Source of the DNA: Oscillospiraceae bacterium
GTDB taxonomy: Bacteria; Bacillota; Clostridia; Oscillospirales; CAG-272
Length of the DNA: 41,287 nt
Assembly: GCA_015064745.1 (NCBI GenBank)
Contig: SVRR01000015.1
Location: 1 to 41,287, forward strand
Direction of reading: 5' to 3'
A program made the position numbers and the translations under genes. The number at the start of each line of letters is the position of its first letter. Position 1 is the stretch's first letter. Shown here piece after piece: positions 18,473-41,287 of this stretch. A model generated the notes under the pieces. The model was not told the DNA's origin. It saw only the letters and a list, made by a program, of their open reading frames with translations, and did no database searches.

Positions 18473-19318
18473 ATGCAAACAAATAAAGTAAAAAAAGAAA
18501 GCGCCTCGTTGCGCTTTCTTTATCATACGGCTGTGGGAAGGCTTTTGTTAAGGCCCCTCGTTGCGCCGCCCGTATCGAGACTCATCGGCGCGTTTATGTC
18601 CTCATCGCTTTCCCGTCCGCTTATCAGACGCTTTGTGAAGAAAAACGGCATCTGTCTTTCGGATTATGAGGATGTGCGCTACCGTTCCTTTAACGATTGC
18701 TTTACGAGAAAGATCAAGGGTGAGAACCGTCCCATCCCCCAAGACAAGGACGTCTTCATCGCGCCCTGCGACGCATACCTTTCCGCCTACCCCATTCAAA
18801 GCGGAAGCGTTTTCCACGTAAAAGGAAACGATTACAGTCTTTTGGGGCTTCTTGACGGCAACCAAGCCTTAGCCGAGAAATACGAGGGCGGTACGGCACT
18901 TATATTCCGTCTTTGCGTGCATCATTATCACCGTTATATTTATCTTGACGCAGGCACGAAGGGCGAAAACGTTTTTATCAAGGGCAAGCTGCACACAGTG
19001 CGTCCCATTGCGCTGGAGGCCTTTCCCGTCTTTGTGCAAAATTCTCGCGAGTATACGGTGTTAAACACGGAAAGCTTCGGCGCAGTCACACAGATTGAGG
19101 TCGGCGCGCTTCTCGTTGGTAAGATCAAAAACCATCACGAAGCACACACCTTTGCTCGCGGCGAGGAAAAAGGGCTGTTTCTTTACGGTGGCTCGACGAT
19201 CATCCTCCTTGTGCCTAAGGATGCCGTTCATTTTGACGAACGTCTTTTCCTTGCAACAGAGGCAAACGAGGAGACTGAGGTAAAGATGGGTGACGTGCTC
19301 GGCAAGCGCCGCGCTTGA
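18473..19318 (+). CDS. psd: Phosphatidylserine decarboxylase proenzyme
   Basis: The 281-residue proenzyme decarboxylates phosphatidylserine to phosphatidylethanolamine. It cleaves itself at the conserved GST motif (GGST, cleavage before Ser about 241), generating the pyruvoyl cofactor. FNDCFTRKIK, the APCDAYLS segment, the HHYHRYIYLDAG histidine motif and the GALLVGKI strand are typical of the family. It is cotranscribed with pssA and the flippase-like gene, giving a complete PE branch. No clear terminator follows before the tRNA promoter. Confidence 0.95.
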   Translation: MQTNKVKKESASLRFLYHTAVGRLLLRPLVAPPVSRLIGAFMSSSLSRPLIRRFVKKNGICLSDYEDVRYRSFNDCFTRKIKGENRPIPQDKDVFIAPCDAYLSAYPIQSGSVFHVKGNDYSLLGLLDGNQALAEKYEGGTALIFRLCVHHYHRYIYLDAGTKGENVFIKGKLHTVRPIALEAFPVFVQNSREYTVLNTESFGAVTQIEVGALLVGKIKNHHEAHTFARGEEKGLFLYGGSTIILLVPKDAVHFDERLFLATEANEETEVKMGDVLGKRRA

Positions 19319-19776: not shown

Positions 19777-22700
19777 TTATTTGTAGCCGCAGAGCTCAAG
19801 GAGCTTGCGCTTTTGGCTCGGCGTGAGGTCGAGGCGGTTGATGTACGCCCGCACCTGCGCCTTGCCGTTGGTGTTGGTGTAGCCGAGGTAGCCCATGATC
19901 ATGTACTTCTCGACAGCAGTCAAGCGCAGAGACGAAACGTACTTTTGCACCTTTGCCTTGCGCGTGCCGCTGATGCTGTCGCCCTTCTTATCCTTATCGG
20001 CTTCAAAAAGGCTTGCGGTCGCAACGGCGAGCGCGAAGGATTCCGCCTTGTCGGCGAACGCCGTGCCGAAGAGCGCGCCCTTGGTTTCGAGATCCAGGTC
20101 AAGTGCCGCTTCCCTTGCCAGCTCGCGGTAGATGCTGTAAAGAGTCGTCATTGCCTTTGCCTTGGCTTCGGGGGTTGCCGACTTGTACGCGGACGTCCGA
20201 ACGAGCGTCGCAATCTTTTCGAGTGAGGTGTTATACACCTTCTCGTAGGTCGCCTTCTGCTCTTCGTCAAGCTCGTATTTAACCTTGTCGATGGTAACAG
20301 TGCTTGGCACACTGCTCGGGATCACGCCATCAAAACCTTGCCCCACGAGCGCCGCCATTTCTCGGCGCACCTCATCGTCCTCGATACCGACCTTCTCGTC
20401 AAGCATCAAGCCCACGATCTTTGCGATCTTGTCCTCGTCGCCGCTTTCGATGGCGCCCTCAAGCTGTTCACGATAGCTTTCCGTCTCGTAGAGAGAGCCG
20501 TCAAAATCCGCACCGAGACGGCGCGAGATGCCGGAGACGAAGTTATATGCGTTTCTCGTCGGGATGCCGAAGAGAGCGCCGCCGGCGTAGAGTATATCCT
20601 TCGCCGCCTTACCGACATCCTTGCCTGTTGCCTTTCCTTGAATGATATCACCCGAAAGCTCGCCGAGCGACCATGCGGCGGAGAAAAGATCGTTTACGGT
20701 AGCATAGGCGTAGTGTTCAAGATCATAGCCGTTCGTGACGCGCGAGACGAAGTCACGAATGAGAGGAAGACCGCCGAAGAGATTGCCGAACACGTCAGCA
20801 AGGAAGGTCCAAACGGTGTCCTCATCGTCCTTGTCGTAGAGGAAGCGGAAGCCTTGTGCAATGAGCGCCATAAAGATAGAGGTCATCAAGAGTGCGCCGA
20901 CCGATTTCCGCGTCTTCTGTGCGGCTTTCTTGATGGCGGCATCGAGTGCTTTGATCTCTGCCGGATCGGTTGCCTGTGCGCGTTTTTTCTTCAAGGTTGC
21001 AAGCTCGCCGATCGCGTCCACCGTTCTACCGACGATTTTCATCGCGTCCGCCGAGAACATCGTCATGGTCTTTACAATCTCATTATGATGTCGCATGGCA
21101 GCAGAGCGCTCGGTCGCAAGCGAGTTTTGCTGTGTCTCGTAGATGACCTGGGTCAGAAGCTCGCCCGCCTTCACCTTGTTCTCCTCGGTGCCAATCTTTG
21201 CACCGCCATCCTTTTCTACCTGCACCTGGCAAGCGGCAAAGAGCTTGCGAACGACGAGACGGTCCATCTTGCCGATGGGCGTCATCAAGACGTCGCCGAG
21301 CTTGTCCGTCTTCTCGATTACGCCTTGCGCGAGCGCCGCCGTGTTCTCGTGGTTGCGGAGCTTGGCGAGCGCGCAATACTTGTCGACATCCGCGCCTGAG
21401 ATACCGAAGCCCTTTACGACGCTCGCATAATCAAGGATCGACGTTGCGGCGATGAAGGAAGAAAGCTGTGTGAGCCATACCTTGGGATTGGCGCCAAGCT
21501 GAAACTTGGCAAAGGAACCGCGGAGCTTGCCGAGCGCCCTATCCCAAGCATCGCGCTTGGATACGCCTTGGATGTCGGCGATGAGCTTCTTGAAATACTC
21601 GTCTGCTATATCCTTGGGGTCGGTGCCGTTCGCGTTCTTCTGCCTGGCGTTTTTGCTGATGCTCGTATTCACGCCCGCCGTGCCGATCGTCACAGGCTTG
21701 TTGGGATTCTCATTCAAATCAAGATTGTAAAGAACGTCGTACTCGTTTAAGACGAGCGCAAGGTTTGCGTACATAGAAACGGCGCGCACGTGGCGATCGA
21801 TCACGCGGTCGAGCCCTTCCATAAAGAGCTCGTTCTTGGCGTTCTTCACGGTATCCTTGTTAAAGCCGGCATTTGATACACGGTCAAGCTCCTCGTAGAA
21901 GGTGCTTGCGTCGTCCACGCTCTTTGCAATGTTTCCGCGGCGAATCGGGACGTAATAGCTTTCGAGCGCGTTGCTGTATCCGCGAAGAAGCATATCGGTG
22001 TCGCGCTTGGCTTGCTTGCAATCCTCGTTAAAGAGCTTTTCGATGATGGAGATGTATTCCTTCTCGGTCGCGGTAAACTGTTCCCCGACCGCTTGCTGTT
22101 CCAGCCTCGCGCGGAAGCGAAGCTCCTCAATACTAAGGTCGGAGGCGAACTCTGCGAAGCCTTCCACGGTGATCACATCATCGCCGTTATAATACTTGAA
22201 GCCCGAATACGCGAGACCGCGGAGTGCCTGGTCACGATTGAAGGTCATATAGAGAAGCATCGCTTGCGCAAGCGGGATCTGCTGTCCGCGGTATTTAACC
22301 GTTTTCTCTTGAATTTCCGTCAAGAAGTCCTTGTGCTTCTCGTAGAAGGCTTCAAGATCCTCGCGCATCTCCATCTCCATCAGCTGCGCCTTGGTCAAGC
22401 CGTCGCGGAGCTTTAAGAACATGGTGGTGTAGAAGCCGGTCGGATCGTAGGCATCCATATAGCGCATGAGCGCCTCAGGGTCGCCGAAGGAACGATAGTA
22501 TTTCTCAAACCACTTACGCATCCACCCGACCTTGGCGCGATTGTTGCGAATGATGCCGTCGCGGTAATCCTTTGCAAGAGGCTTTGCTTCGACGTACTTG
22601 CCGTCGCGATACACCTTGCCCCAATTCTGCACGAAGTGGGTGAAGTAATCGACCACAGATTCAAGCGCGAGAAGCTCGTCTGCGGTGAATTCGCCCTCGC

Positions 22701-25700
22701 CCTTCATCAGAATCTCCAGCGTCGCGGCAACGCCTTCATCGTAGTTTTCCTTGGTAATGACAAGGTTTCCGTCGCCGAGCTTGTACCACTCCGCAAGCCC
22801 CGCGAGGATCTTGCGCGAGCTTGATTTGTTCAGGTTTCCTCGGTGCTCGATTTTCGCCAGTTGCTCGATGCTGCCCTTGAAGGTGTCGGTCTTGTACTGT
22901 GACGCGTTGAGAAACGCGCCTGTCTTAAGGTCCTTCAGCTTGCGCAGCTTGTGAAGCACGCGGTTGCCGTAGTAGGTGCGGTTGTATTCCTCCTCAAAAC
23001 GTTCTTTCCACGTTTGGTTGACCTTGCGCAGCTTCTCGCGCTGCTCGCTTATGAACTCCGAAAGCATCGAGGTGCTTCCCTTTTCGTCGTAAGTACGAAG
23101 AACGCGGCGCACGATCTCTTGTCTGAGCGCGCGGATCTCTTCCGCGCCGACGGCATCCTTCAGCATGCGCTTTGTTGCCGCGAGGCTGTCTGTGGCATCC
23201 TCGTATGCCGACGCAATCGCAAAGAAAACATCGGCGGGGTTTTGCTCCTCGATTGTGAAGCCCTGCTCCGCAAGCTCTTTGGCAACGACGTCGACAGGAA
23301 GCCCTTGTTTGTCCTTCGGCTTATTCCATCGACCGTATACACCTTTGGTTTTGTCGTCATAGCGGTGAGAGATCTCATCCCTCAAAGGCTCAAGGTCCAG
23401 CTTTTGCAGATAGGGGCGAAGGATATTTAAAAGCTCAATATCCATCTGCAAGCCAACGTCAAGAACGCGCTCAAGCATGGCGTGCTCGATAATATAGTCC
23501 GCAACCTTGTTTGCCACAGCACCGCGCTTTCCCGGAGCTGCACCGTTCAACCCTTGCCAAAGCATATCGACAACCTCTTCGCGGGATTTGCCGCGCAAGG
23601 TTGCTTGCTCATCTTCGGAATACAGAGTGTTTGTCAGGATCTCGTGGATGGCTTCATCTGCTTCGGTCTTGGAGTAGGTCTTGGCGCGGGTGTAGTTCGC
23701 GACCATCTTCTTGATCTGCCCGTCGGACACCTCGTAGACTGTACCCGAAGGATTGGGGGATTTGAGCGAAAAGTTTACCTTTTTGCTTGCTTTGGCTTTA
23801 GCTGTTTGCTCAGGAATCCCGTAAAGCGTTTTTAATTTTCGGAGGATTTCTGCGATTTCTGCGCTTGTGTAAGTTCTATGATTCTCCCCAGCTCGTTCAG
23901 AATCTCCTGGTTGGTTGCGCGCGGATTTTCTTTGAGAAACATAATCATTCTCATTTGTTCCTCTTCCGTCTCCAATGCCGAGAAGATTGCCTCCTCTTCC
24001 TCGTCCGGAAGATCGGTGAGGCTCAGTCCATACGTCAGCAATTTCTCTGTCATTGTTAATTGCATTGATTCTTTCCTTTCTCGACGCTTTTCCGTCGTTA
24101 ACACGCAACATCGTGCCGTGCATATAGCCATCTGCTTTGAAGACATAAACACTGCCGGCGTAAATGGCGACCGTTCTCTCTTCGCCTTCTGCGATGTCGG
24201 CGGTTTTGTTCGCTAGACTTCTTGCGAACGAATCTCGATCTTCAGAAGCAACTTCTTGCGCAAATTGGTCGGTCGCTATGTAAAGATCTTCACCGTCACC
24301 TCCACGAGCTTTCCTCGAAAACCGAATATCCGCATTTCTTGTCGGAGGCTTGTCGGTCTCGTGTTCCGCCTGCGCTTCGGTCAGCGCGGCGCCGGTGGAG
24401 GATTTGCGGGAGAATTTTACAGCCCTGCGATTTCTTGCGCTTTCGTTAGAATCTCCGCTTCGGTCGCTTCCGGATTCTTCTCCGTAAAACTCACGAGATC
24501 GTCCATTTGTGTCTTGTTCTTCAACATCGAAGTTATCATCTCCGAGGTTGCTTGAGCGATCCCAATATCTCTCATAATTCTCGCGAACGCTTTCACTAGC
24601 TCTTTGTTTTTCTCCGTGATTTTCATTATATACCTCGCTGTGCAAGTTTTTTATTACTTCTGCATTTTTCGGCACATCTTCGATAGAGAGGAGAGTTCCG
24701 TATCGATCCTCTGTTTCGTCCGCTACAAGCTTGTTCCAAGTGTTGTCGCTTGGGTTGTAGAGGACCTTGATGTCGCCGGGCTTAGTTTTGGAAGAAAAAG
24801 CCCATTGCATCGCCGTAGAATAGTATTGACTGTATGTCTGCTTTTTCTTTTTTACCGTAGTGCTTTTTCTATTATACTGCACCGCCTCTTCGCTGTCAAG
24901 GCTTTCTTCCTCCTCGATCTCGGGAGCGTGGGAGAGGAAATACTTTGCAAGGCGGGTGTTTCCCGACTGCTCTGCGGCTTTGATGTACAGCTTCTGCGCG
25001 GTCTTCAGCGTTTTGCTTGCGCCCTTGCCGCCGATCGCCTTGCAGACGTCAACGAGCTTGTCGAAGATCTTACGCGCAAGCGGCGCGTCCTTGGCAACAA
25101 GCTTATCAATGAACGCCTCGTTTCCAAGCAGATGCTCGGTCGCGTGCGCCATCAGCTCGTCGTTGAAAACGGAGTATTTGTCCGCTTCTTCTTCGGTCAG
25201 ATCTTTGCCTGCCTGTTTCTTATCGATAATGGCGCCGATCTCTTCGGCGGTAAAGCCATAGCCTTTTGACAGCACGCTCTCTGCCGCGACCTTATAGAGC
25301 GCCTGTTTGCCATTTTTTGTGTCAACGGTGAGATCTTCGTCGATCAAGAATTTTGCGAGCTTTGCATACTCTGCCGAGCCTTCCGAGAAGTGAGTGTGCT
25401 CGTGGATGAGATCCTTTTCCCAGGTGCCATTTTCAAAGGAATCTGCGCCGATGTACAGCTTACCGTCCTTTGCCGCCGCGTGGAAGGTGTCGTTCGCCTT
25501 CGTGACGACGAAGCCCGTCTTCGCGCCTGCGATGGTATCAAGGGCGTTGCGCGCCTTGACGAACCTACGGAAGGCTTCCTGTCCCTTCTCCGAAAGTTCC
25601 GCATCGTTGACGGCAAAGGTGCCTACGGCGGCACGTGCTTCTTCGATAGAGACACCGTTTTCCTCGGCATACATTTCCGCTGCTTCCTCTGCCATATCGT

Positions 25701-27042
25701 CAAGATCGGCTTGGACGGTCTTATCCTTGCCCGCGAGAGAGCGTGAAACAAAGGCGGTCGTTGCCTTGCCGCTTTCGATCTGTGCAGAAAGAGAATCCAT
25801 CACGTCGGCGTTAAGCTCGCCTTTGCCGTTCATGAAATCGTGAAGGATGGGGGCTGCTTTGAGACATTCCACTCTCTGCGCCTCGCTCATTCCTTTGAGG
25901 TTTGCGGAGATGCTTTCGAGCGACGAAACGATCTGTTTGTTCGCCGCACTCTCCACGGCATCCTTTTGCTCGTCGGTGCTTGTCTCGGACATCTTGATCG
26001 CCTCGGAGGCCTTCATCACGTCCTCGATGTTCTGCATTTCGGCGGCGACGGAAAGAAACCGCTTTCCGCCCTTGCTCTTGTTTTTCACGGCACTGATGCC
26101 GCTTTGCAATCCGCCCATCACAACGCCTGTGGCGCCGCCGATGACAAAGGTCTTGGGGAGGCCCTTAAGGACCTCGCCATAGTTCGACATCGCATCTTCG
26201 TCTATGCCGAACACTTGCTTATTGATGGGGTCGACAAGGTCCGCAAGAATTTCCTCGACGCCCTCGGATGCAAAGTTGTACGCGACCTTTCCGATGCCAC
26301 GGCGGACGAAGGAATCCGCGCCCTTTTTGACGAGCGCGCGGCCGATCACGGAATCCGCAAGCTGATTCGCACCGCCCATCGTGATACCGCCGAGGCTTTC
26401 AAGGCCGCCCTCGATGACACCCGCGACGGTACCGTAACCGAGCGCCTGTCCGAAGGATGCGCCTTCCTTCAGCGCGCCCTCAGTGCTTCTGCCTGCCGCG
26501 CTTGTGATAAAGGTTGCAGTCGGGAGTTTTGAAAGAACCGCGCCGGCGGCGGCACCGCCCGTCGCCGCAGAGATCGCCACAGCAGGAAGCATGCCGCCGA
26601 TGCCTTGTGCGATACCGTTGATGATGCCGTCCTCTTCGAGGTAGGATGCCTTTGAGATATCGGAGCCCCACGTCGTATCAAACAAGCCTTCATCGCCATC
26701 TCTGCCGAACGCATCCGAGGTAAAATCGTAGGCGATAAAATTCTTGACGTCGTTTTCAAACTCATCGCTGAACAGTCCGCCGATAAGTCCGACGCCCCCT
26801 GCAACAAAGTCGACGATACCCTCGACAGCATCCGTGGCACCTTGGAGCACGTTGACAGAGACGTCGAGCACCGTTGCGCCTGAGCGCAGAAGGGGGCTGT
26901 AATCTTCCTTCTGCTCCTTTTGCGGTTGGGACAGCGGCATTGCTTTGCGATTATCGCTGAAGGAAACGCCCTGCTTCTCCTTCGCCTTGAGCGATGCGAA
27001 GCTTGCCTTGCGCTCCATCGGTGAGATCTTATAGGTCGTCAT
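19777..27042 (-). CDS. Giant polyvalent virion protein with zincin-like domain (2421 aa)
   Basis: This resembles the large polyvalent proteins that phages carry in the capsid and inject with their DNA. The N-terminal ~330 residues alternate basic stretches with Gly/Ala-rich hydrophobic segments (GGAAAGAVL, IGGATGVVMGGL). A zincin-like domain follows, with HEHTH at 547-551 and a downstream glutamate in NDELMAH (E629). Motifs VQYNRK (721), VKFSRK (875), IRFSRK (906) and VNFSLK (1089) separate small domains at about 727-805 and 911-992. Residues 806-875 and 993-1071 are charged, Ser/Arg/Asn-rich and overprinted by two nested genes. The rest is long and helical, with one membrane-like helix (about 2040-2062) and a duplicated 24-residue repeat at the end (2365-2421). 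ATG 27042 follows CAGGAGAG. No single activity can be assigned; the polyvalent/ejection role is inferred from size, domain style and position. Confidence 0.8.
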   Translation of the reverse strand: MTTYKISPMERKASFASLKAKEKQGVSFSDNRKAMPLSQPQKEQKEDYSPLLRSGATVLDVSVNVLQGATDAVEGIVDFVAGGVGLIGGLFSDEFENDVKNFIAYDFTSDAFGRDGDEGLFDTTWGSDISKASYLEEDGIINGIAQGIGGMLPAVAISAATGGAAAGAVLSKLPTATFITSAAGRSTEGALKEGASFGQALGYGTVAGVIEGGLESLGGITMGGANQLADSVIGRALVKKGADSFVRRGIGKVAYNFASEGVEEILADLVDPINKQVFGIDEDAMSNYGEVLKGLPKTFVIGGATGVVMGGLQSGISAVKNKSKGGKRFLSVAAEMQNIEDVMKASEAIKMSETSTDEQKDAVESAANKQIVSSLESISANLKGMSEAQRVECLKAAPILHDFMNGKGELNADVMDSLSAQIESGKATTAFVSRSLAGKDKTVQADLDDMAEEAAEMYAEENGVSIEEARAAVGTFAVNDAELSEKGQEAFRRFVKARNALDTIAGAKTGFVVTKANDTFHAAAKDGKLYIGADSFENGTWEKDLIHEHTHFSEGSAEYAKLAKFLIDEDLTVDTKNGKQALYKVAAESVLSKGYGFTAEEIGAIIDKKQAGKDLTEEEADKYSVFNDELMAHATEHLLGNEAFIDKLVAKDAPLARKIFDKLVDVCKAIGGKGASKTLKTAQKLYIKAAEQSGNTRLAKYFLSHAPEIEEEESLDSEEAVQYNRKSTTVKKKKQTYSQYYSTAMQWAFSSKTKPGDIKVLYNPSDNTWNKLVADETEDRYGTLLSIEDVPKNAEVIKNLHSEVYNENHGEKQRASESVRENYERYWDRSSNLGDDNFDVEEQDTNGRSREFYGEESGSDRSGDSNESARNRRAVKFSRKSSTGAALTEAQAEHETDKPPTRNADIRFSRKARGGDGEDLYIATDQFAQEVASEDRDSFARSLANKTADIAEGEERTVAIYAGSVYVFKADGYMHGTMLRVNDGKASRKERINAINNDREIADVWTEPHRSSGRGRGGNLLGIGDGRGTNENDYVSQRKSARNQPGDSERAGENHRTYTSAEIAEILRKLKTLYGIPEQTAKAKASKKVNFSLKSPNPSGTVYEVSDGQIKKMVANYTRAKTYSKTEADEAIHEILTNTLYSEDEQATLRGKSREEVVDMLWQGLNGAAPGKRGAVANKVADYIIEHAMLERVLDVGLQMDIELLNILRPYLQKLDLEPLRDEISHRYDDKTKGVYGRWNKPKDKQGLPVDVVAKELAEQGFTIEEQNPADVFFAIASAYEDATDSLAATKRMLKDAVGAEEIRALRQEIVRRVLRTYDEKGSTSMLSEFISEQREKLRKVNQTWKERFEEEYNRTYYGNRVLHKLRKLKDLKTGAFLNASQYKTDTFKGSIEQLAKIEHRGNLNKSSSRKILAGLAEWYKLGDGNLVITKENYDEGVAATLEILMKGEGEFTADELLALESVVDYFTHFVQNWGKVYRDGKYVEAKPLAKDYRDGIIRNNRAKVGWMRKWFEKYYRSFGDPEALMRYMDAYDPTGFYTTMFLKLRDGLTKAQLMEMEMREDLEAFYEKHKDFLTEIQEKTVKYRGQQIPLAQAMLLYMTFNRDQALRGLAYSGFKYYNGDDVITVEGFAEFASDLSIEELRFRARLEQQAVGEQFTATEKEYISIIEKLFNEDCKQAKRDTDMLLRGYSNALESYYVPIRRGNIAKSVDDASTFYEELDRVSNAGFNKDTVKNAKNELFMEGLDRVIDRHVRAVSMYANLALVLNEYDVLYNLDLNENPNKPVTIGTAGVNTSISKNARQKNANGTDPKDIADEYFKKLIADIQGVSKRDAWDRALGKLRGSFAKFQLGANPKVWLTQLSSFIAATSILDYASVVKGFGISGADVDKYCALAKLRNHENTAALAQGVIEKTDKLGDVLMTPIGKMDRLVVRKLFAACQVQVEKDGGAKIGTEENKVKAGELLTQVIYETQQNSLATERSAAMRHHNEIVKTMTMFSADAMKIVGRTVDAIGELATLKKKRAQATDPAEIKALDAAIKKAAQKTRKSVGALLMTSIFMALIAQGFRFLYDKDDEDTVWTFLADVFGNLFGGLPLIRDFVSRVTNGYDLEHYAYATVNDLFSAAWSLGELSGDIIQGKATGKDVGKAAKDILYAGGALFGIPTRNAYNFVSGISRRLGADFDGSLYETESYREQLEGAIESGDEDKIAKIVGLMLDEKVGIEDDEVRREMAALVGQGFDGVIPSSVPSTVTIDKVKYELDEEQKATYEKVYNTSLEKIATLVRTSAYKSATPEAKAKAMTTLYSIYRELAREAALDLDLETKGALFGTAFADKAESFALAVATASLFEADKDKKGDSISGTRKAKVQKYVSSLRLTAVEKYMIMGYLGYTNTNGKAQVRAYINRLDLTPSQKRKLLELCGYK
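23832..24065 (-). CDS. Nested small gene B, overprinted in +1 frame of the polyvalent gene (77 aa)
   Basis: In the same relative frame as gene A, codons 993-1071 of the giant gene overlap a 77-residue acidic helical protein (MQLTMTEKLLTYGLSLTD...KENPRATNQEILNELGRIIEL). ATG 24065 is preceded by GAGAAAGGAAAGAATCA, giving AAAGGA 8 nt upstream. It shares QM-x-F-KENPxAT-x2-EIL with gene A, so the two are paralogues. The host frame across it (for example SSGRGRGGNLLGIGDGRG) is polar and of low complexity. The gene ends about 54 bp before the VNFSLK motif. A longer in-frame extension up to 24152 exists but has no good ribosome binding site and an unlikely composition. Confidence 0.7.
   Translation of the reverse strand: MQLTMTEKLLTYGLSLTDLPDEEEEAIFSALETEEEQMRMIMFLKENPRATNQEILNELGRIIELTQAQKSQKSSEN
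24417..24626 (-). CDS. Nested small gene A, overprinted in +1 frame of the polyvalent gene (69 aa)
   Basis: Within codons 806-875 of the giant gene, the +1 frame encodes a compact 69-residue helical protein (MKITEKNKELVKAFARIM...KNPEATEAEILTKAQEIAGL). The ATG at 24626 has a GAGG box 6 nt upstream (complement of 24633-24636). The TAA stop lies exactly at the Val of the VKFSRK motif in the host frame. It is clearly related to nested gene B: both have QM, a 5-6 residue spacer with F, (K/E)NPxAT and EIL. In contrast, the host frame here is hydrophilic and disordered-looking (Ser, Arg, Asn, Glu, Gly rich). I do not recognise the family by name. An antidote or immunity role for the preceding domain is a hypothesis. 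Confidence 0.7.
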   Translation of the reverse strand: MKITEKNKELVKAFARIMRDIGIAQATSEMITSMLKNKTQMDDLVSFTEKNPEATEAEILTKAQEIAGL

Positions 27043-36071: not shown

Positions 36072-36938
36072 TTACGCAAACTTGACGTTGATGTTGACGA
36101 TTTCCTTGGGGCGAACGACCTTCGCATCAAAGAGAATGAATCCCTTCACCGCATCGGCAAAGTGGTTTTCAGGACGGTACGCCTCGGTGTGAGTAAGAGG
36201 CTTCGCAAACGCAACAGCTCTCTGCGTGCGGATCATAATGTTGTCAACGGTGCCGCTATCCGTAGTGTGCACGTTGTTCGACATCTTCACGATGACGTTG
36301 CCGTATTTAGCCACCTTGCCGTTTTTGAGGATCTCCGAATTGTCGGTATCCTTATCGGCATACTCTCTTTTGAAAAGAGTGTAAAAGCGGGGGGAAACGG
36401 TTACAACGATCTTGGTGCTCGCTTTCACGTCGTTCTCATAAAGTCTTTGAATCGCCTCATCCAAGACATGAAGCACGTTCTTCTCGCCGCTTGCTGCGGT
36501 GCCCGCCACGACCTTGACCGGAGCGTTGCCGTACAGTTTTTTCACGGAAGAGTCGACGGCAAAGCTGGATACGTACTTGTCAACCTCATCCGCAAGGCCC
36601 TCCGAGGTCTCGGCGGAAAGCGCGTCCATAACGCCCCCGGTCGCCTGCGCCTTATCGATGTCGCCGATCATATAGTTAAAGTAGCGGATCTGATTGATGT
36701 ACATAATGACCGAGGTATCCTCGATCTCCTCCGCCTGATCGATTGCGTTGTTTCGCTGTGCCTTGGTAAGGCTTTTGATGGTAGGCTTGCCAACGCCGAG
36801 AATGGTGACCGATTCACCCTTCTTGGACACTGCACCCTCGTACTTGGTGTTGCAGTCCTCGACGAAGACGCAGAGTCTTTCGAGCTCTCGATTGATCTCT
36901 TCGCTCCAAACGCCGGGGATAAAGTTCTGATATGCCAT
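36072..36938 (-). CDS. Major capsid protein
   Basis: The 288-residue protein follows the scaffold gene and has a strong AGGAGG box. The N-arm (MAYQNFIPGVWSEEINREL) and a helix-rich middle (spine-helix-like ADEVDKYVSSFAVDSSV) precede a strand-rich C-terminal part with the KIVVTVSPRFYTLFKR, NNVHTTDSG and ENHFADAVKGFILFDAKVV segments. This order is typical of HK97-fold capsid proteins of short-tailed and related phages. The assignment is supported by order; the exact family is not named. Confidence 0.82.
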   Translation of the reverse strand: MAYQNFIPGVWSEEINRELERLCVFVEDCNTKYEGAVSKKGESVTILGVGKPTIKSLTKAQRNNAIDQAEEIEDTSVIMYINQIRYFNYMIGDIDKAQATGGVMDALSAETSEGLADEVDKYVSSFAVDSSVKKLYGNAPVKVVAGTAASGEKNVLHVLDEAIQRLYENDVKASTKIVVTVSPRFYTLFKREYADKDTDNSEILKNGKVAKYGNVIVKMSNNVHTTDSGTVDNIMIRTQRAVAFAKPLTHTEAYRPENHFADAVKGFILFDAKVVRPKEIVNINVKFA

Positions 36939-37802: not shown

Positions 37803-39749
37803 TCAAACGAGATTTACAGCACCTTGATTGGCGGCAGCTGCAATTGTCGCCGCCATCTCCTGCGCGTCGTGGGTCGTGTCGGCGAGCGCTTGATTCCCGC
37901 GTGCAACCTCGATGTTTCCCTGCGAGATCTTTGTTTTCGCCTCGGTATAAAGCTGCGCTAAGAACGCCTTCGTCCGCATCAGCTCTTCTATGATCGACTG
38001 CACTTGGTCGACGCTCTTTTGCTGTTTTTGGATGATTTCCGCGCTCTCTGCGAGCTTTTTTATAGCCTGCTCGTATTGTGCAGACATCACCCGAAGCTGA
38101 TCGTTCTCCTCTTCCTCGATCGCCTTGAGGAGCTTGCTCTTGTTGGTGATCGCATCGTCGGGGTATACCTTGATATATGTCTTCGGCGAAATGAGACCCT
38201 TTGATACCATCACATCGAGAATGTTGATATCACCCGCGGCGGAAGCCTTCGTGCCCGACGTCGCCTCCGTGACGACGGTGAATTCAACGGCTCGGAACTC
38301 GGCGCTGTCGAAGATATCCTCTAGCTGCACTTCCTCTGTCTTTCCGTTTTCGGAAGTCACGGAATCCATATACGAGAAGGATTTCTGCTCATAGTAGTGC
38401 TTAAAGAATTGAGCGAGAACAAGACCTTGCTTTTCCTTGACCTTCCAAAAGGTATCTCTTAACTCCTCGACGGGCTGCTGCGCTTGCGATTGTAGTTGAG
38501 CAATGGCGGCGCCCGACATATTTGCGCCAATGGTTTCTCCCGTCATAACCTCGGAAGATCCGGTCACAGCGCGTGTCAGCTGCGTCAACGTATCGACGAG
38601 CGTGAGTGGTTGGGATTGCATCGCTTGTTCGGTCATTTTGCGGATACCCGAGCCCGTTTCCGAGTAGTCCACGAGCACCTGGCCCGGCTCGTTGTTGATG
38701 ACCTGCCCTTGAAGCGCTCTTGGGTGGACGATGTATTTTCCCCACGCGGTTTCCTGCGCATTTAGAAGCGCCATTGCGAGGTTGAAGTTGATGCTCTTTT
38801 GGTTGGGAATGATCCCTTCTACCTCGCCAAGGCCGTAAATGGAGCTTTCGCGGTATTCGTAGTTACCGACGACAATGGGATAAAGATACATCTTTGCGGC
38901 GTCGGGGATCAGCTGATCCTTTGCGGTTGCATCCGGTAATGCGTTGTTGGGGGCGTCCTCTTCTACAAAAAAGCCAAGTTCGACGCCGGCACTTGCGAGG
39001 TCGGGCGTGAGGGGGAAAGGCTTGTTGACGATGGTCGTCTTGGTCGCCTTCTCGCAAAAGACCTCTCCGTCACGGCGAAAGTAGCGCGTGAGAACGGTGC
39101 AAAGCTTGTTGCCCTCTTGCTCTACCGTGCCGTATTTGCTGTTGTTTTCATCAGCGACGATGCTTTCCTTGTCCACGTCACTGTCGCACTTGGCTCGTAC
39201 CGAGCTCACGTCCTCACGCGAGGCGATCATAATCCATTTCTGTTTCTGCTCGTCGACCTCGGTGGGATTCGAAAAAAAGATGTTCAAGGGGTCGATGGTT
39301 TCACATCGAAGTCCGCCCTCTTTCACGCCGTCCTTCCCCTTTGCTTCGGCGTCCCAATAGTAGTGATAGAAGTAAGACCCCTTAACGACGCCGTCTCCCA
39401 CGGCTTTTTTATCAAGCGCGTCCTGCCCGATCTCTTTTTGAATGTAGTCGGCAAAGCGATTGAATTTCTCCACATCTGCCAACGTGTCCTCGGCGCGGAA
39501 CACAATGCGCACGGGGGTGGACAGGATCGCGGATTTTTTGTTGCGGCAAATCATCTTGATAATGTTTACCACGGGGCGAGGAAGGTTTTTCGTGGCAGGC
39601 GTAGCTTTCGGCCACTGGTCGCCTTGATAGAATTTGACAAACCGAGGCAGGTTTTTCGAAAGCCCGCAGTTCGCCTGATACGAAAGCCCGTTTTGGTAAT
39701 CGTCCCACAGCTTCTGTGCCTCAGTCGCGGTGTCAAAACGCTCGTTCAT
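37803..39749 (-). CDS. Portal protein
   Basis: The 648-residue protein lies between the terminase pair and the scaffold gene. Typical portal segments are FVKFYQGDQWP near the start, RPVVNIIKMICRNKKSAIL and a PIVVGNYEYRESSIYGLGEVE stretch. A middle SGAAIAQLQSQAQQPVEELRDTFWKVKE helix and a long coiled-coil-rich C-terminus with an Ala/Gln-rich end (TIAAAANQGAVNLV) follow. Twelve copies would form the DNA entry ring. Its ATG overlaps the preceding stop by 4 bp. Confidence 0.85.
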   Translation of the reverse strand: MNERFDTATEAQKLWDDYQNGLSYQANCGLSKNLPRFVKFYQGDQWPKATPATKNLPRPVVNIIKMICRNKKSAILSTPVRIVFRAEDTLADVEKFNRFADYIQKEIGQDALDKKAVGDGVVKGSYFYHYYWDAEAKGKDGVKEGGLRCETIDPLNIFFSNPTEVDEQKQKWIMIASREDVSSVRAKCDSDVDKESIVADENNSKYGTVEQEGNKLCTVLTRYFRRDGEVFCEKATKTTIVNKPFPLTPDLASAGVELGFFVEEDAPNNALPDATAKDQLIPDAAKMYLYPIVVGNYEYRESSIYGLGEVEGIIPNQKSINFNLAMALLNAQETAWGKYIVHPRALQGQVINNEPGQVLVDYSETGSGIRKMTEQAMQSQPLTLVDTLTQLTRAVTGSSEVMTGETIGANMSGAAIAQLQSQAQQPVEELRDTFWKVKEKQGLVLAQFFKHYYEQKSFSYMDSVTSENGKTEEVQLEDIFDSAEFRAVEFTVVTEATSGTKASAAGDINILDVMVSKGLISPKTYIKVYPDDAITNKSKLLKAIEEEENDQLRVMSAQYEQAIKKLAESAEIIQKQQKSVDQVQSIIEELMRTKAFLAQLYTEAKTKISQGNIEVARGNQALADTTHDAQEMAATIAAAANQGAVNLV

Positions 39750-40024
39750 TCGTCCTCACCTTCCTCTCCATTTAGCCACTGATCCATAACCTCCGCGCTC
39801 GAAAGCACCGCGCTCGGCTTCGTCGTCGCCTCCGAAACGGTCTTTTTCGGCATAGCGGCAATCACATCTCGCATCTGCGCGAAATCGCTTTTCAGCTCTT
39901 CAAGCTCAAGCGAAAGCCTTTCGTTTTCTTCCCAAAGGTCATCAAGCTCCTTTTGGAGCTCCTCTTCTTTTTCCTTTGCCACACGCGCGAGATCTTCGTT
40001 ATACTTCTTTCTTCTGATGAACAT
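39746..40024 (-). CDS. Small coiled-coil protein between terL and portal
   Basis: The 92-residue protein starts MFIRRKKYNEDLARVAKEKE, followed by a long acidic coiled coil (ELDDLWEENERLSLELEELK) and an acidic end (NGEEGEDE). ATG 40024 overlaps the terL TGA (TGATG), with GGGAGGA 6 nt upstream; the longer upstream frame is not coding. Not recognised. Its position suggests a portal- or terminase-associated accessory. Confidence 0.7.
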   Translation of the reverse strand: MFIRRKKYNEDLARVAKEKEEELQKELDDLWEENERLSLELEELKSDFAQMRDVIAAMPKKTVSEATTKPSAVLSSAEVMDQWLNGEEGEDE

Positions 40025-41287
40025 CAAAAATCCTCCCAGCTGATATACGAGAGGCCTTGCGCCTCTTGTGTGTGAAAATTGGACGAGATAAAGTCCTTCT
40101 CGTCGTTCTCTGCCGTGATCCACGAGGTTGTTTGCGACTTCGATATGAAATGAGTGATGGCAAGCGCCATAACAAGGTCGTCGTGCGCACCGTCAATAGC
40201 TTCTTGCTTTCCGTTGTCTTTTTTGACAAAGGTCGTCATTTCCTTAAGCGTCGGGATGTCCACCTCGACACTCGGATCGTCGCGCATAATCTCCACGAGC
40301 TCGCCGATGATGATGGGCTTCGTCTTTGTGGTCGTCACAAATCCATAGTCCATCGTTGGCTTGTCCGTCATCCTGTCGAGGATCTCGCGCATATAAAGGT
40401 TTGGGTACCTGTATTTTTTCTGCAGCACTCTTGTCGGGTGCCTGGAATAGTTGATTTCGAGCCCGACCAAAGCGTCGTGATAATATTTGCCTAAGCAGTA
40501 AATTTGTTCGGCGTACAGGTCCTCGTCTATGTATTGCTTGTGCAAGGTCGCCACCGTGTGACCGTCAAGATTGCAAATGACCTTGGCTGAGAAATAGTCT
40601 TGCCCGGTACCTGCCGTGTCACCTCCGATAACGTAAGGCGCCCTTGCTGCCACGTTGCCATCTGTGTCTGTCTTGACTCTTGGCTCCTCATGTATCGTGA
40701 TGAACCCGTCAGCTGTCTCGCGGAAAACGATATCCTTGATGTGCCACTCGGTATCCACAATGTTGCCGTTTGCATCCGTGATTGGCACACACTCCTTTTT
40801 GTACTCGAAGGCACCGCGTCGAGCCCCCTTCAAGGCCCCCGCACGGATGATCTGGTTGCTGATGGCTTCTTTGTCGAAGACGCACTCTCCGCTGGATATA
40901 AACGCTTCCTCGGGCGTGATGGGGTATTCTTGTTTGATGGTGTTCTTGTCGAGGTAAGAGGCGTATTTCTTCGCGTACCACGCAAGCTGCTCGCGATCGC
41001 ACCCTCGCTCGGCAAGCACTTGAAGGCGTTCCTTTAGCCACGCATCGGGCGTGTCAAGATACTCATACTCCGTCGAGCGATACTCAGGGGAGCGCCACCA
41101 CTCGTAGAAAAGATTGTGACAGCTTTCCGAATCCCATAAGTCCTTCGCTTGGTTAAAGCCGTTCGCGGTCGTCTCATACACTTGAATAGCCCCCGCGGTG
41201 ATTGCCTCACCGATACCCGCCTGCAAGGAAGCGAGATCACACTCGTAAAAAGCTACCTCGGAAAAATGCACAAAGTTCAGTGTGCGA
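40024..41287 (-). CDS. terL: Terminase large subunit, C-terminal part
   Basis: The gene extends past the right edge; about 420 C-terminal residues are visible. It opens in the ATPase at the Walker B-like VHFSEVAFYE and the coupling motif TTANGF. The RNase-H-like nuclease follows: GGDTAGTGQDYFSA (first Asp), VGLEINYS (Glu) and DGAHDDLVMALAI (third Asp). TerL packages and cuts phage DNA at the portal. The visible start-like codon at 41271 is an internal valine, so the true start is outside the window. Its stop overlaps the coiled-coil gene. Confidence 0.93.
   Translation of the reverse strand, partial: RTLNFVHFSEVAFYECDLASLQAGIGEAITAGAIQVYETTANGFNQAKDLWDSESCHNLFYEWWRSPEYRSTEYEYLDTPDAWLKERLQVLAERGCDREQLAWYAKKYASYLDKNTIKQEYPITPEEAFISSGECVFDKEAISNQIIRAGALKGARRGAFEYKKECVPITDANGNIVDTEWHIKDIVFRETADGFITIHEEPRVKTDTDGNVAARAPYVIGGDTAGTGQDYFSAKVICNLDGHTVATLHKQYIDEDLYAEQIYCLGKYYHDALVGLEINYSRHPTRVLQKKYRYPNLYMREILDRMTDKPTMDYGFVTTTKTKPIIIGELVEIMRDDPSVEVDIPTLKEMTTFVKKDNGKQEAIDGAHDDLVMALAITHFISKSQTTSWITAENDEKDFISSNFHTQEAQGLSYISWEDF

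What the first reader, a model, noticed from the sequence alone, without database searches (positions are those of the whole stretch)
23832..24626. Two paralogous small genes nested in the +1 frame of one giant phage gene
Inside the 2421-aa polyvalent gene, two short frames (24626-24417 and 24065-23832) encode compact helical proteins that share QM, NPxAT and EIL at equivalent positions. Both use the same +1 frame, and each has an ATG and a purine-rich ribosome binding site at normal spacing (GAGG; AAAGGA). Seen directly: the giant frame stays open, but exactly there becomes polar, low in hydrophobic residues and Ser/Arg/Asn/Gly rich. That is what is expected when the other frame is the one under protein-level constraint. 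Inference: each follows a distinct ~80-aa domain, so this may be a duplicated effector-domain plus overprinted antidote cassette, protecting the producing cell from a virion-carried domain.
Basis: partly seen in the sequence, partly recalled or inferred. Interest (0 to 1): 0.92.

Follow-up and report, generated by a model that had tools for sequence, protein, structure and literature searches.

The report
Small genes hidden inside phage gene
A giant phage gene from gut bacteria carries small second genes written in another reading frame of the same DNA, each tied to the protein domain just before it, perhaps as a built-in antidote to that domain.

Summary
Two small ORFs (24626-24417, 24065-23832, minus strand) lie in the +1 frame of the 2421-codon gene 27042-19777. 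An open +1 frame alone proves nothing here; homology and constraint do. I found 29 distinct members; in 29 of 29 the long frame stays open across the small ORF while the third frame has 3-14 stops. In 8 disjoint sequence pairs the small frame is under purifying selection (omega 0.25, 0.19-0.33) and the long frame is near neutral there (1.18, 0.90-1.65). Starts carry strong Shine-Dalgarno sequences. Searching by neighbouring domain alone, 9 of 9 new places carried the nested ORF. Five domain types occur, and small-protein subfamilies follow domain type. One giant-gene backbone holds different domain-plus-nested-gene cassettes.

Best reading: exchangeable effector/antidote cassettes inside a polyvalent protein, the antidote written in the other frame. 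Dual coding is well supported; antidote function is inferred. The two domains in the window are not detectable duplicates.

The parts
19777..27042 (-). giant gene, 2421 codons; polyvalent-protein-like; host of the nested genes
   Evidence: PHROG phrog_22978 (unknown function) E 2.9e-34 over residues 1356-2173; homologues carry ART-PolyVal and LPD3
24417..24626 (-). nested gene 1 (P0001), 69 codons, +1 frame, ATG
   Evidence: relatives L082 and L063 (second ORF) behind the same domain type; pair P0001/L063 is one of the 8 constraint pairs
24633..24636 (-). SD-like GAGG of nested gene 1
   Evidence: best anti-SD energy of 36 nested starts in the gene
24622..24876 (-). domain A in the giant frame, in front of nested gene 1 (conserved ENYERYW runs on into the overlap)
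   Evidence: profile A7 match; alignments
23832..24065 (-). nested gene 2 (P0002), 77 codons, +1 frame, ATG
   Evidence: 10 further distinct relatives behind the same domain type
24074..24079 (-). SD-like AAAGGA of nested gene 2
   Evidence: sixth of 36 nested starts by anti-SD energy
24019..24291 (-). domain B in the giant frame, in front of and overlapping the start of nested gene 2
   Evidence: profile A3 match
25390..25404 (-). HEHTH (HExxH) motif, residues 547-551, of a zincin-type peptidase by motif only
   Evidence: position; no Pfam peptidase match
24403..24420 (-). linker motif VKFSRK (residues 875-880) directly behind nested gene 1; IRFSRK at 906 and VNFSLK at 1089 are alike
   Evidence: positions; a role as processing site is inference
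37803..39749 (-). P22-like portal gene (context)
36072..36938 (-). major head protein gene (context)

Best explanation
The giant gene encodes a polyvalent protein, probably carried in the virion, with exchangeable effector domains. Each of the domains studied travels with a second gene written in the +1 frame over the end of the domain and the linker behind it. That gene makes an acidic protein of about 70 aa that looks helical from its sequence. Shown: the small frame encodes a conserved protein family, it has its own start and SD, its subfamily follows the domain type, and different cassettes sit in one backbone. Inferred: the small protein binds and neutralises the domain encoded just before it while the giant protein is made in the producing cell. 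It would be made from the same mRNA by internal initiation and left behind at packaging, so that only the effector reaches the next cell. A lysogen might also be protected against a superinfecting phage with the same cassette.
For: Domain-first searches: 9 of 9 new places carry the nested ORF. Small frame constrained, giant frame near neutral in the overlap, yet the giant frame is kept open in 29 of 29. SD enrichment. Domain type on the small-protein tree: 5 changes where 4 is the least, shuffled mean 14.5, as low in 0 of 200. Backbone 78% and 53% identical on either side of domains that are 13% identical. 29 of 29 small proteins net negative, as is common for antitoxins (the comparison is general knowledge). 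Homologues of the giant protein carry ART-PolyVal or LPD3, and the gene lies beside virion genes.
Against: No domain or small protein matches anything of known function, so toxicity and neutralisation are inference. One small-protein family serves domains that look unrelated, which is unusual for specific antidotes. Two members have lost the domain in front (L093, L094) and one relative seems to stand free (L105), so the small gene can exist without a domain partner. A chaperone would leave most of the same traces. For domains A, D and E there is no independent domain-first test (searched only genomes already known to hold a small ORF).
Confidence: 0.55

Rival explanations
1. Cassette-specific chaperone or loading factor: the small protein binds its neighbouring domain to keep it soluble, unfolded or correctly packaged, and does not block a harmful activity.
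For: The same pairing, subfamily concordance and cassette exchange are expected; small, acidic proteins are usual for such chaperones (general knowledge).
Against: Nothing found here speaks directly against it.
Confidence: 0.22
2. Independent accessory gene: the small protein has its own job (regulator, counter-defence) and merely sits in a tolerant linker.
For: L093 and L094 keep the small ORF without the full domain; L105 may be free-standing.
Against: 9 of 9 domain-first places carry it and subfamily follows domain type.
Confidence: 0.13
3. Frameshift product: ribosomes shift by +1 near the end of the domain and make a domain-small-protein fusion.
For: In 12 of 29 the +1 frame is open for more than 10 codons before the start.
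Against: In 17 of 29 a stop in the small frame lies within 10 codons before the start; starts have strong SD sequences; 25 of 29 use ATG, 3 GTG, 1 TTG.
Confidence: 0.05
4. Shadow ORF without a function: an open +1 frame by composition.
For: Such open frames are common in this gene.
Against: Profile-level homology across genomes, constraint in the small frame, SD enrichment.
Confidence: 0.01

Closest known systems
Polyvalent proteins of phages and conjugative elements (Iyer et al. 2017, PMC5512222; listing, outline with abstract, and passages seen)
   Same: Very long, many domains, next to virion genes, HExxH motif; homologues carry ART-PolyVal and LPD3
   Different: No nested partner gene is mentioned in the passages that I saw; the domains A-E are not in Pfam
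Polymorphic toxin systems with exchangeable toxin/immunity cassettes (described in passages of PMC5512222; otherwise recalled)
   Same: Constant backbone with exchanged domain plus partner gene
   Different: Cassette lies in the middle of the protein, and the partner gene is inside the same gene in another frame, not behind it
Type II toxin-antitoxin pairs (e.g. the H. pylori tfs4 pair in PMC7584586; passages and outline seen)
   Same: Small acidic putative partner encoded next to the effector; partner genes may overlap
   Different: Here the partner lies wholly inside a giant gene; toxicity and neutralisation untested
Overprinted bacterial orphan genes (PMC4683798; search listing only)
   Same: Protein-coding frame inside another gene
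   Different: Here one small-gene family recurs over several dissimilar domains in many genomes, and the small frame is the better conserved one

Membership tests
Polyvalent protein | very long protein beside virion or conjugation genes | tested here: met
   2421 aa; portal, major head and terminase-like genes on the same strand
Polyvalent protein | curated polyvalent-protein domain | tested here: inconclusive
   none in the window's own protein; ART-PolyVal in L009 and L043, LPD3 in L041, which are homologues of it
Polyvalent protein | zincin-like peptidase | tested here: inconclusive
   HEHTH motif at residue 547 but no Pfam match
Polyvalent protein | packaged and delivered with the DNA | not testable with these tools
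   needs virion proteomics
Nested overlapping protein-coding gene | purifying selection in the nested frame | tested here: met
   omega 0.25 (0.19-0.33) over 540 codons, 8 disjoint pairs
Nested overlapping protein-coding gene | own initiation signal | tested here: met
   anti-SD energy median -7.6 for 28 starts, -3.0 for 311 same-frame ATGs; use in the cell not tested
Polymorphic toxin/immunity cassette | domain and partner gene exchanged together in a constant backbone | tested here: met
   backbone 78% and 53% on either side of domains 13% alike, both with a nested family member
Polymorphic toxin/immunity cassette | toxin at the C-terminal tip, immunity gene behind it | tested here: not met
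   internal domain, partner nested
Toxin-antitoxin pair | toxin inhibits growth and the partner neutralises it | not testable with these tools
   bench test needed
PBECR or other known effector domain | matches a curated domain model or a known fold | tested here: inconclusive
   no Pfam match for domains A-E, no PADLOC match for those scanned; fold not testable because structure prediction was off

The most novel reading that the evidence does not exclude
Phage polyvalent proteins carry a modular system of effector domains whose antidotes are written in a second frame of the same gene. Effector and antidote then cannot easily be separated by recombination and come from one mRNA, but only the effector is delivered to the next cell. 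One antidote family has diversified to serve several unrelated effector domains.
Probability: 0.45. Interest if true: 0.93.

Novelty: new variant of a known kind. Interest (0 to 1): 0.85.

Why it matters
It offers an answer to a simple question about injected phage effectors: how the producing cell survives them. It also suggests that annotation which discards nested ORFs misses a class of small phage genes, and that these genes point to new effector domains. The pairs are small and can be tested directly in laboratory E. coli. Repeated long overlaps in which the small frame bears the main constraint are also good material for studying how one stretch of DNA can encode two proteins.

Tried and rejected
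Chance ORFs: openness alone is expected, but homology and constraint reject chance. Duplicated effector domains: A and B not detectably related, nor the four other pairs compared; 5 of the 10 possible pairs of A-E were compared, with shallow profiles. Known families: no acceptable match for the small family in Pfam, NCBIfam, PHROGs, PADLOC or PDB sequences (P0001 matched ADDB_N at 20.5 bits, under its 26.6-bit cut-off), nor for the domains in Pfam or, for A/B and C, PDB sequences. Annotated phages: no match for P0002, P0004 or domains B, D, E; plasmids: none for domains B, D, E. P0001 and domains A and C were not searched there. Viral contigs: profiles of D, E and two small subfamilies gave no confirmed locus; A gave one contig, which also carries a nested ORF identical to P0001. 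Codon usage as an age test: the giant frame over the overlap looks more like the upstream codon usage than the small frame in 27 of 28, against my inclination that the small gene is older; the usage signal is very weak and tied to the small frame's amino acids, so I draw no conclusion. Mechanism by fold comparison was not possible.

Rows dropped or circular: profiles A3 and A4 were built from members first found through the small ORF, so only L050-L054, L063-L065 and L043 count as domain-first (L041 repeats L050, L044 repeats L043, L042 ends at its contig edge). Weak domain hits L055-L058 and L066 (E 6e-4 to 9e-3) showed no small ORF and no domain-like context; I treated them as chance. L020 is a weak small-profile hit inside what looks like a ribosomal S4 gene and was dropped; weak hits below 20 bits were not counted. 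L083, cut by a contig end, was left out of the constraint, SD and tree tests. L093 and L094 were left out of the tree but are in the constraint pairs although their domain is lost; the upstream control for L015/L093 is largely non-homologous DNA and that for L065/L094 has no codons. Both L104 members and one of the two L106 members are not in the tree. Tree labels of L025 (A) and L091 (C) were given by eye. In one search my script picked a wrong ATG for L104a, so that row is void; one search shows the long frame open over its matched stretch.

Full report
What is there. The window holds a prophage with a P22-like portal (37803-39749), a major head gene (36072-36938) and a terminase-like gene (40024-41271), all on the minus strand, and further along that strand the 2421-codon gene 27042-19777. 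Inside it, in the +1 frame, lie ORFs of 69 and 77 codons with ATG starts and SD-like sequences. Their products are alike (34% over 41 aa, E 2e-4 for one comparison).

Is it chance? Openness is no argument: keeping the giant protein and shuffling its synonymous codons leaves the +1 frame open in 15476 and 12236 of 20000 shuffles. So I turned to relatives. A profile of the two ORFs and a third from the same genome (G000:C39) matched 27 of 246 family genomes at E up to 0.05; 11 places are strong (E below 1e-7), 3 of them in the window's own genome. All 11 lie at offset +1 of a long open frame. With a 19-sequence profile, 29 places in 18 of 395 family genomes match at E up to 0.001, four of them in the own genome. 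In 132 genomes of the order 5 match, the own genome and 4 from three other families.

Domain-first test. I built profiles of the domains in front of the small ORFs and searched with those alone. Domain B gave 15 places in 395 family genomes, 11 of them strong; domain C gave 8, of which 7 are strong; viral contigs gave L041-L044. Nine distinct places had not been used to build the profiles: L050-L054 (B), L063-L065 and viral L043 (C). In 9 of 9 a small ORF at +1 lies at the end of the domain and matches the small-protein profile at 27-80 bits. For A, D and E no such independent test was made: searched only genomes already known to hold a small ORF. In 391 genomes of the class the domain B profile hit only the own genome.

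Constraint. Over 29 distinct small ORFs in the loci held, the giant frame has no stop in 29 of 29 while the third frame has 3-14. If the small proteins are kept and their codons shuffled, the giant frame stays open with probability from below 0.00025 to 0.0485 (24 sequences, 5), so the giant frame seems to be kept open. In 19 pairs under 40% divergence the small-frame protein is more conserved than the giant-frame protein in 19 of 19, and substitutions at small-codon position 3 exceed those at position 2 in 19 of 19 (these pairs share sequences). In 8 disjoint pairs, substitutions at giant positions 1/2/3 are 194/117/79 in the overlap and 195/161/295 upstream (chi-square p 4e-16). A two-frame count gives omega 0.35 for the small and 1.16 for the giant frame uncorrected, and 0.25 (0.19-0.33) and 1.18 (0.90-1.65) corrected, with bootstrap over 540 codons. 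Caveats: two of the 8 pairs contain members whose domain is lost (L093, L094), so part of the upstream control is not homologous; some pairs are near saturation; P0002 itself is in none of the pairs.

Starts. The anti-SD duplex energy has median -7.6 for 28 small starts, -3.0 for 311 other ATGs in the same frame (p 3e-11) and -2.9 for 1160 random positions. One of the 28 has no SD (+0.6). In 17 of 29 an in-frame stop lies within 10 codons before the start.

Cassettes. Five domain types stand in front of the nested gene: A and B (both in the window), C, D (own genome C21 and G726) and E (G837 and G849, other families). A further, poorly resolved one stands before the other L106 member and an L104 member. 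None of the 5 profile comparisons made, out of 10 possible, linked two types. On a tree of 28 small proteins domain type needs 5 changes where 4 is the least; shuffled labels need 14.5 on average and were never as low in 200 (many branches weak, two labels by eye). The window's giant protein and the C39 protein share the backbone on both sides of the cassette (78% over 195 and 53% over 104 residues), while domain A and domain C between them are 13% identical (10 of 79); the overlap part behind them is alike (BLASTP E 7e-6 over the cassette's second half), as expected if both encode a member of one nested family. So the domain differs while backbone and nested-gene family stay. Conserved domain ends (ENYxRYW in A, DRxxADxW in B) reach into the first ~20 codons of the small ORF; the rest of the overlap is a Gly/Arg/Ser/Asp-rich linker in the giant frame.

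What the giant protein is. The window's own protein has no Pfam match above cut-off but matches phrog_22978, of unknown function. Homologues carry ART-PolyVal (L009, L043) and LPD3 (L041). It has an HExxH motif at residue 547. L009 lies beside tail genes and a reverse transcriptase. This fits the polyvalent proteins of PMC5512222 (listing, outline with abstract, and passages seen), which are proposed to be injected with the DNA and perhaps processed by zincin peptidases. The passages seen mention no nested partner gene. Searches of the paper library that listed no report of such nesting; most listed papers were not opened, and the library holds no preprints and few subscription journals.

How it may work. 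The most economical reading is an effector whose antidote is written over its own tail: one mRNA gives the giant protein and, by internal initiation, a small acidic protein that holds the domain inactive in the producing cell. The small protein is left behind, so the recipient meets the effector alone. Strict pairing, subfamily concordance, exchange and acidity (29 of 29 net negative, median pI 5.0) support this without proving it. A chaperone or loading factor would leave most of the same traces. Domain fold and activity are unknown; structure prediction was busy and then switched off. That the domains begin with a helix followed by strands is my reading of the sequences, not a result.

Exceptions told. 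L105 (G876) resembles the family (40 bits) but is not nested throughout: it follows two genes that look to me like chromate-transporter genes, so free-standing members may exist. L093 keeps only the tail of domain B, and L094 follows an unrelated gene. In L063/L090 the first half of domain A is missing from the open frame. Codon usage favours the giant frame in 27 of 28, against my inclination that the small gene came first; the signal is weak, and the question of origin stays open.

Noticed in passing
L009:4298-5671 (+), beside tail gene L009:3174-4280: A reverse transcriptase (phrog_1423, E 1.5e-101) follows a tail protein upstream of the homologous giant gene, as in a diversity-generating retroelement.
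   Followed up: no
L105:918-1136 (-): A 72-aa relative of the small family that seems free-standing, behind two genes that look like chromate-transporter genes; it may show what the family was before nesting, or be a chance likeness.
   Followed up: partly
window 24420-24403, 24327-24310, 23778-23761 (-): Recurrent short motif [VI][KRN]FS[RL]K at the borders of cassettes in the giant protein; possible processing sites of the protein's own HExxH peptidase (positions; role is inference).
   Followed up: no
window 18473-19318 (+): Phosphatidylserine decarboxylase gene (Pfam PF02666, E 4e-48) just outside the prophage end, on the other strand.
   Followed up: no
L063/L090 (G736:C40): Two nested small genes, one behind domain C and one behind a domain A that lacks its first half; the giant frame is broken between them.
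   Followed up: partly
L010: A contig with a 56% homologue of the giant protein's C-terminal part is labelled Alistipes, while the other relatives are Clostridia or Christensenellaceae; possibly a mis-binned contig.
   Followed up: no
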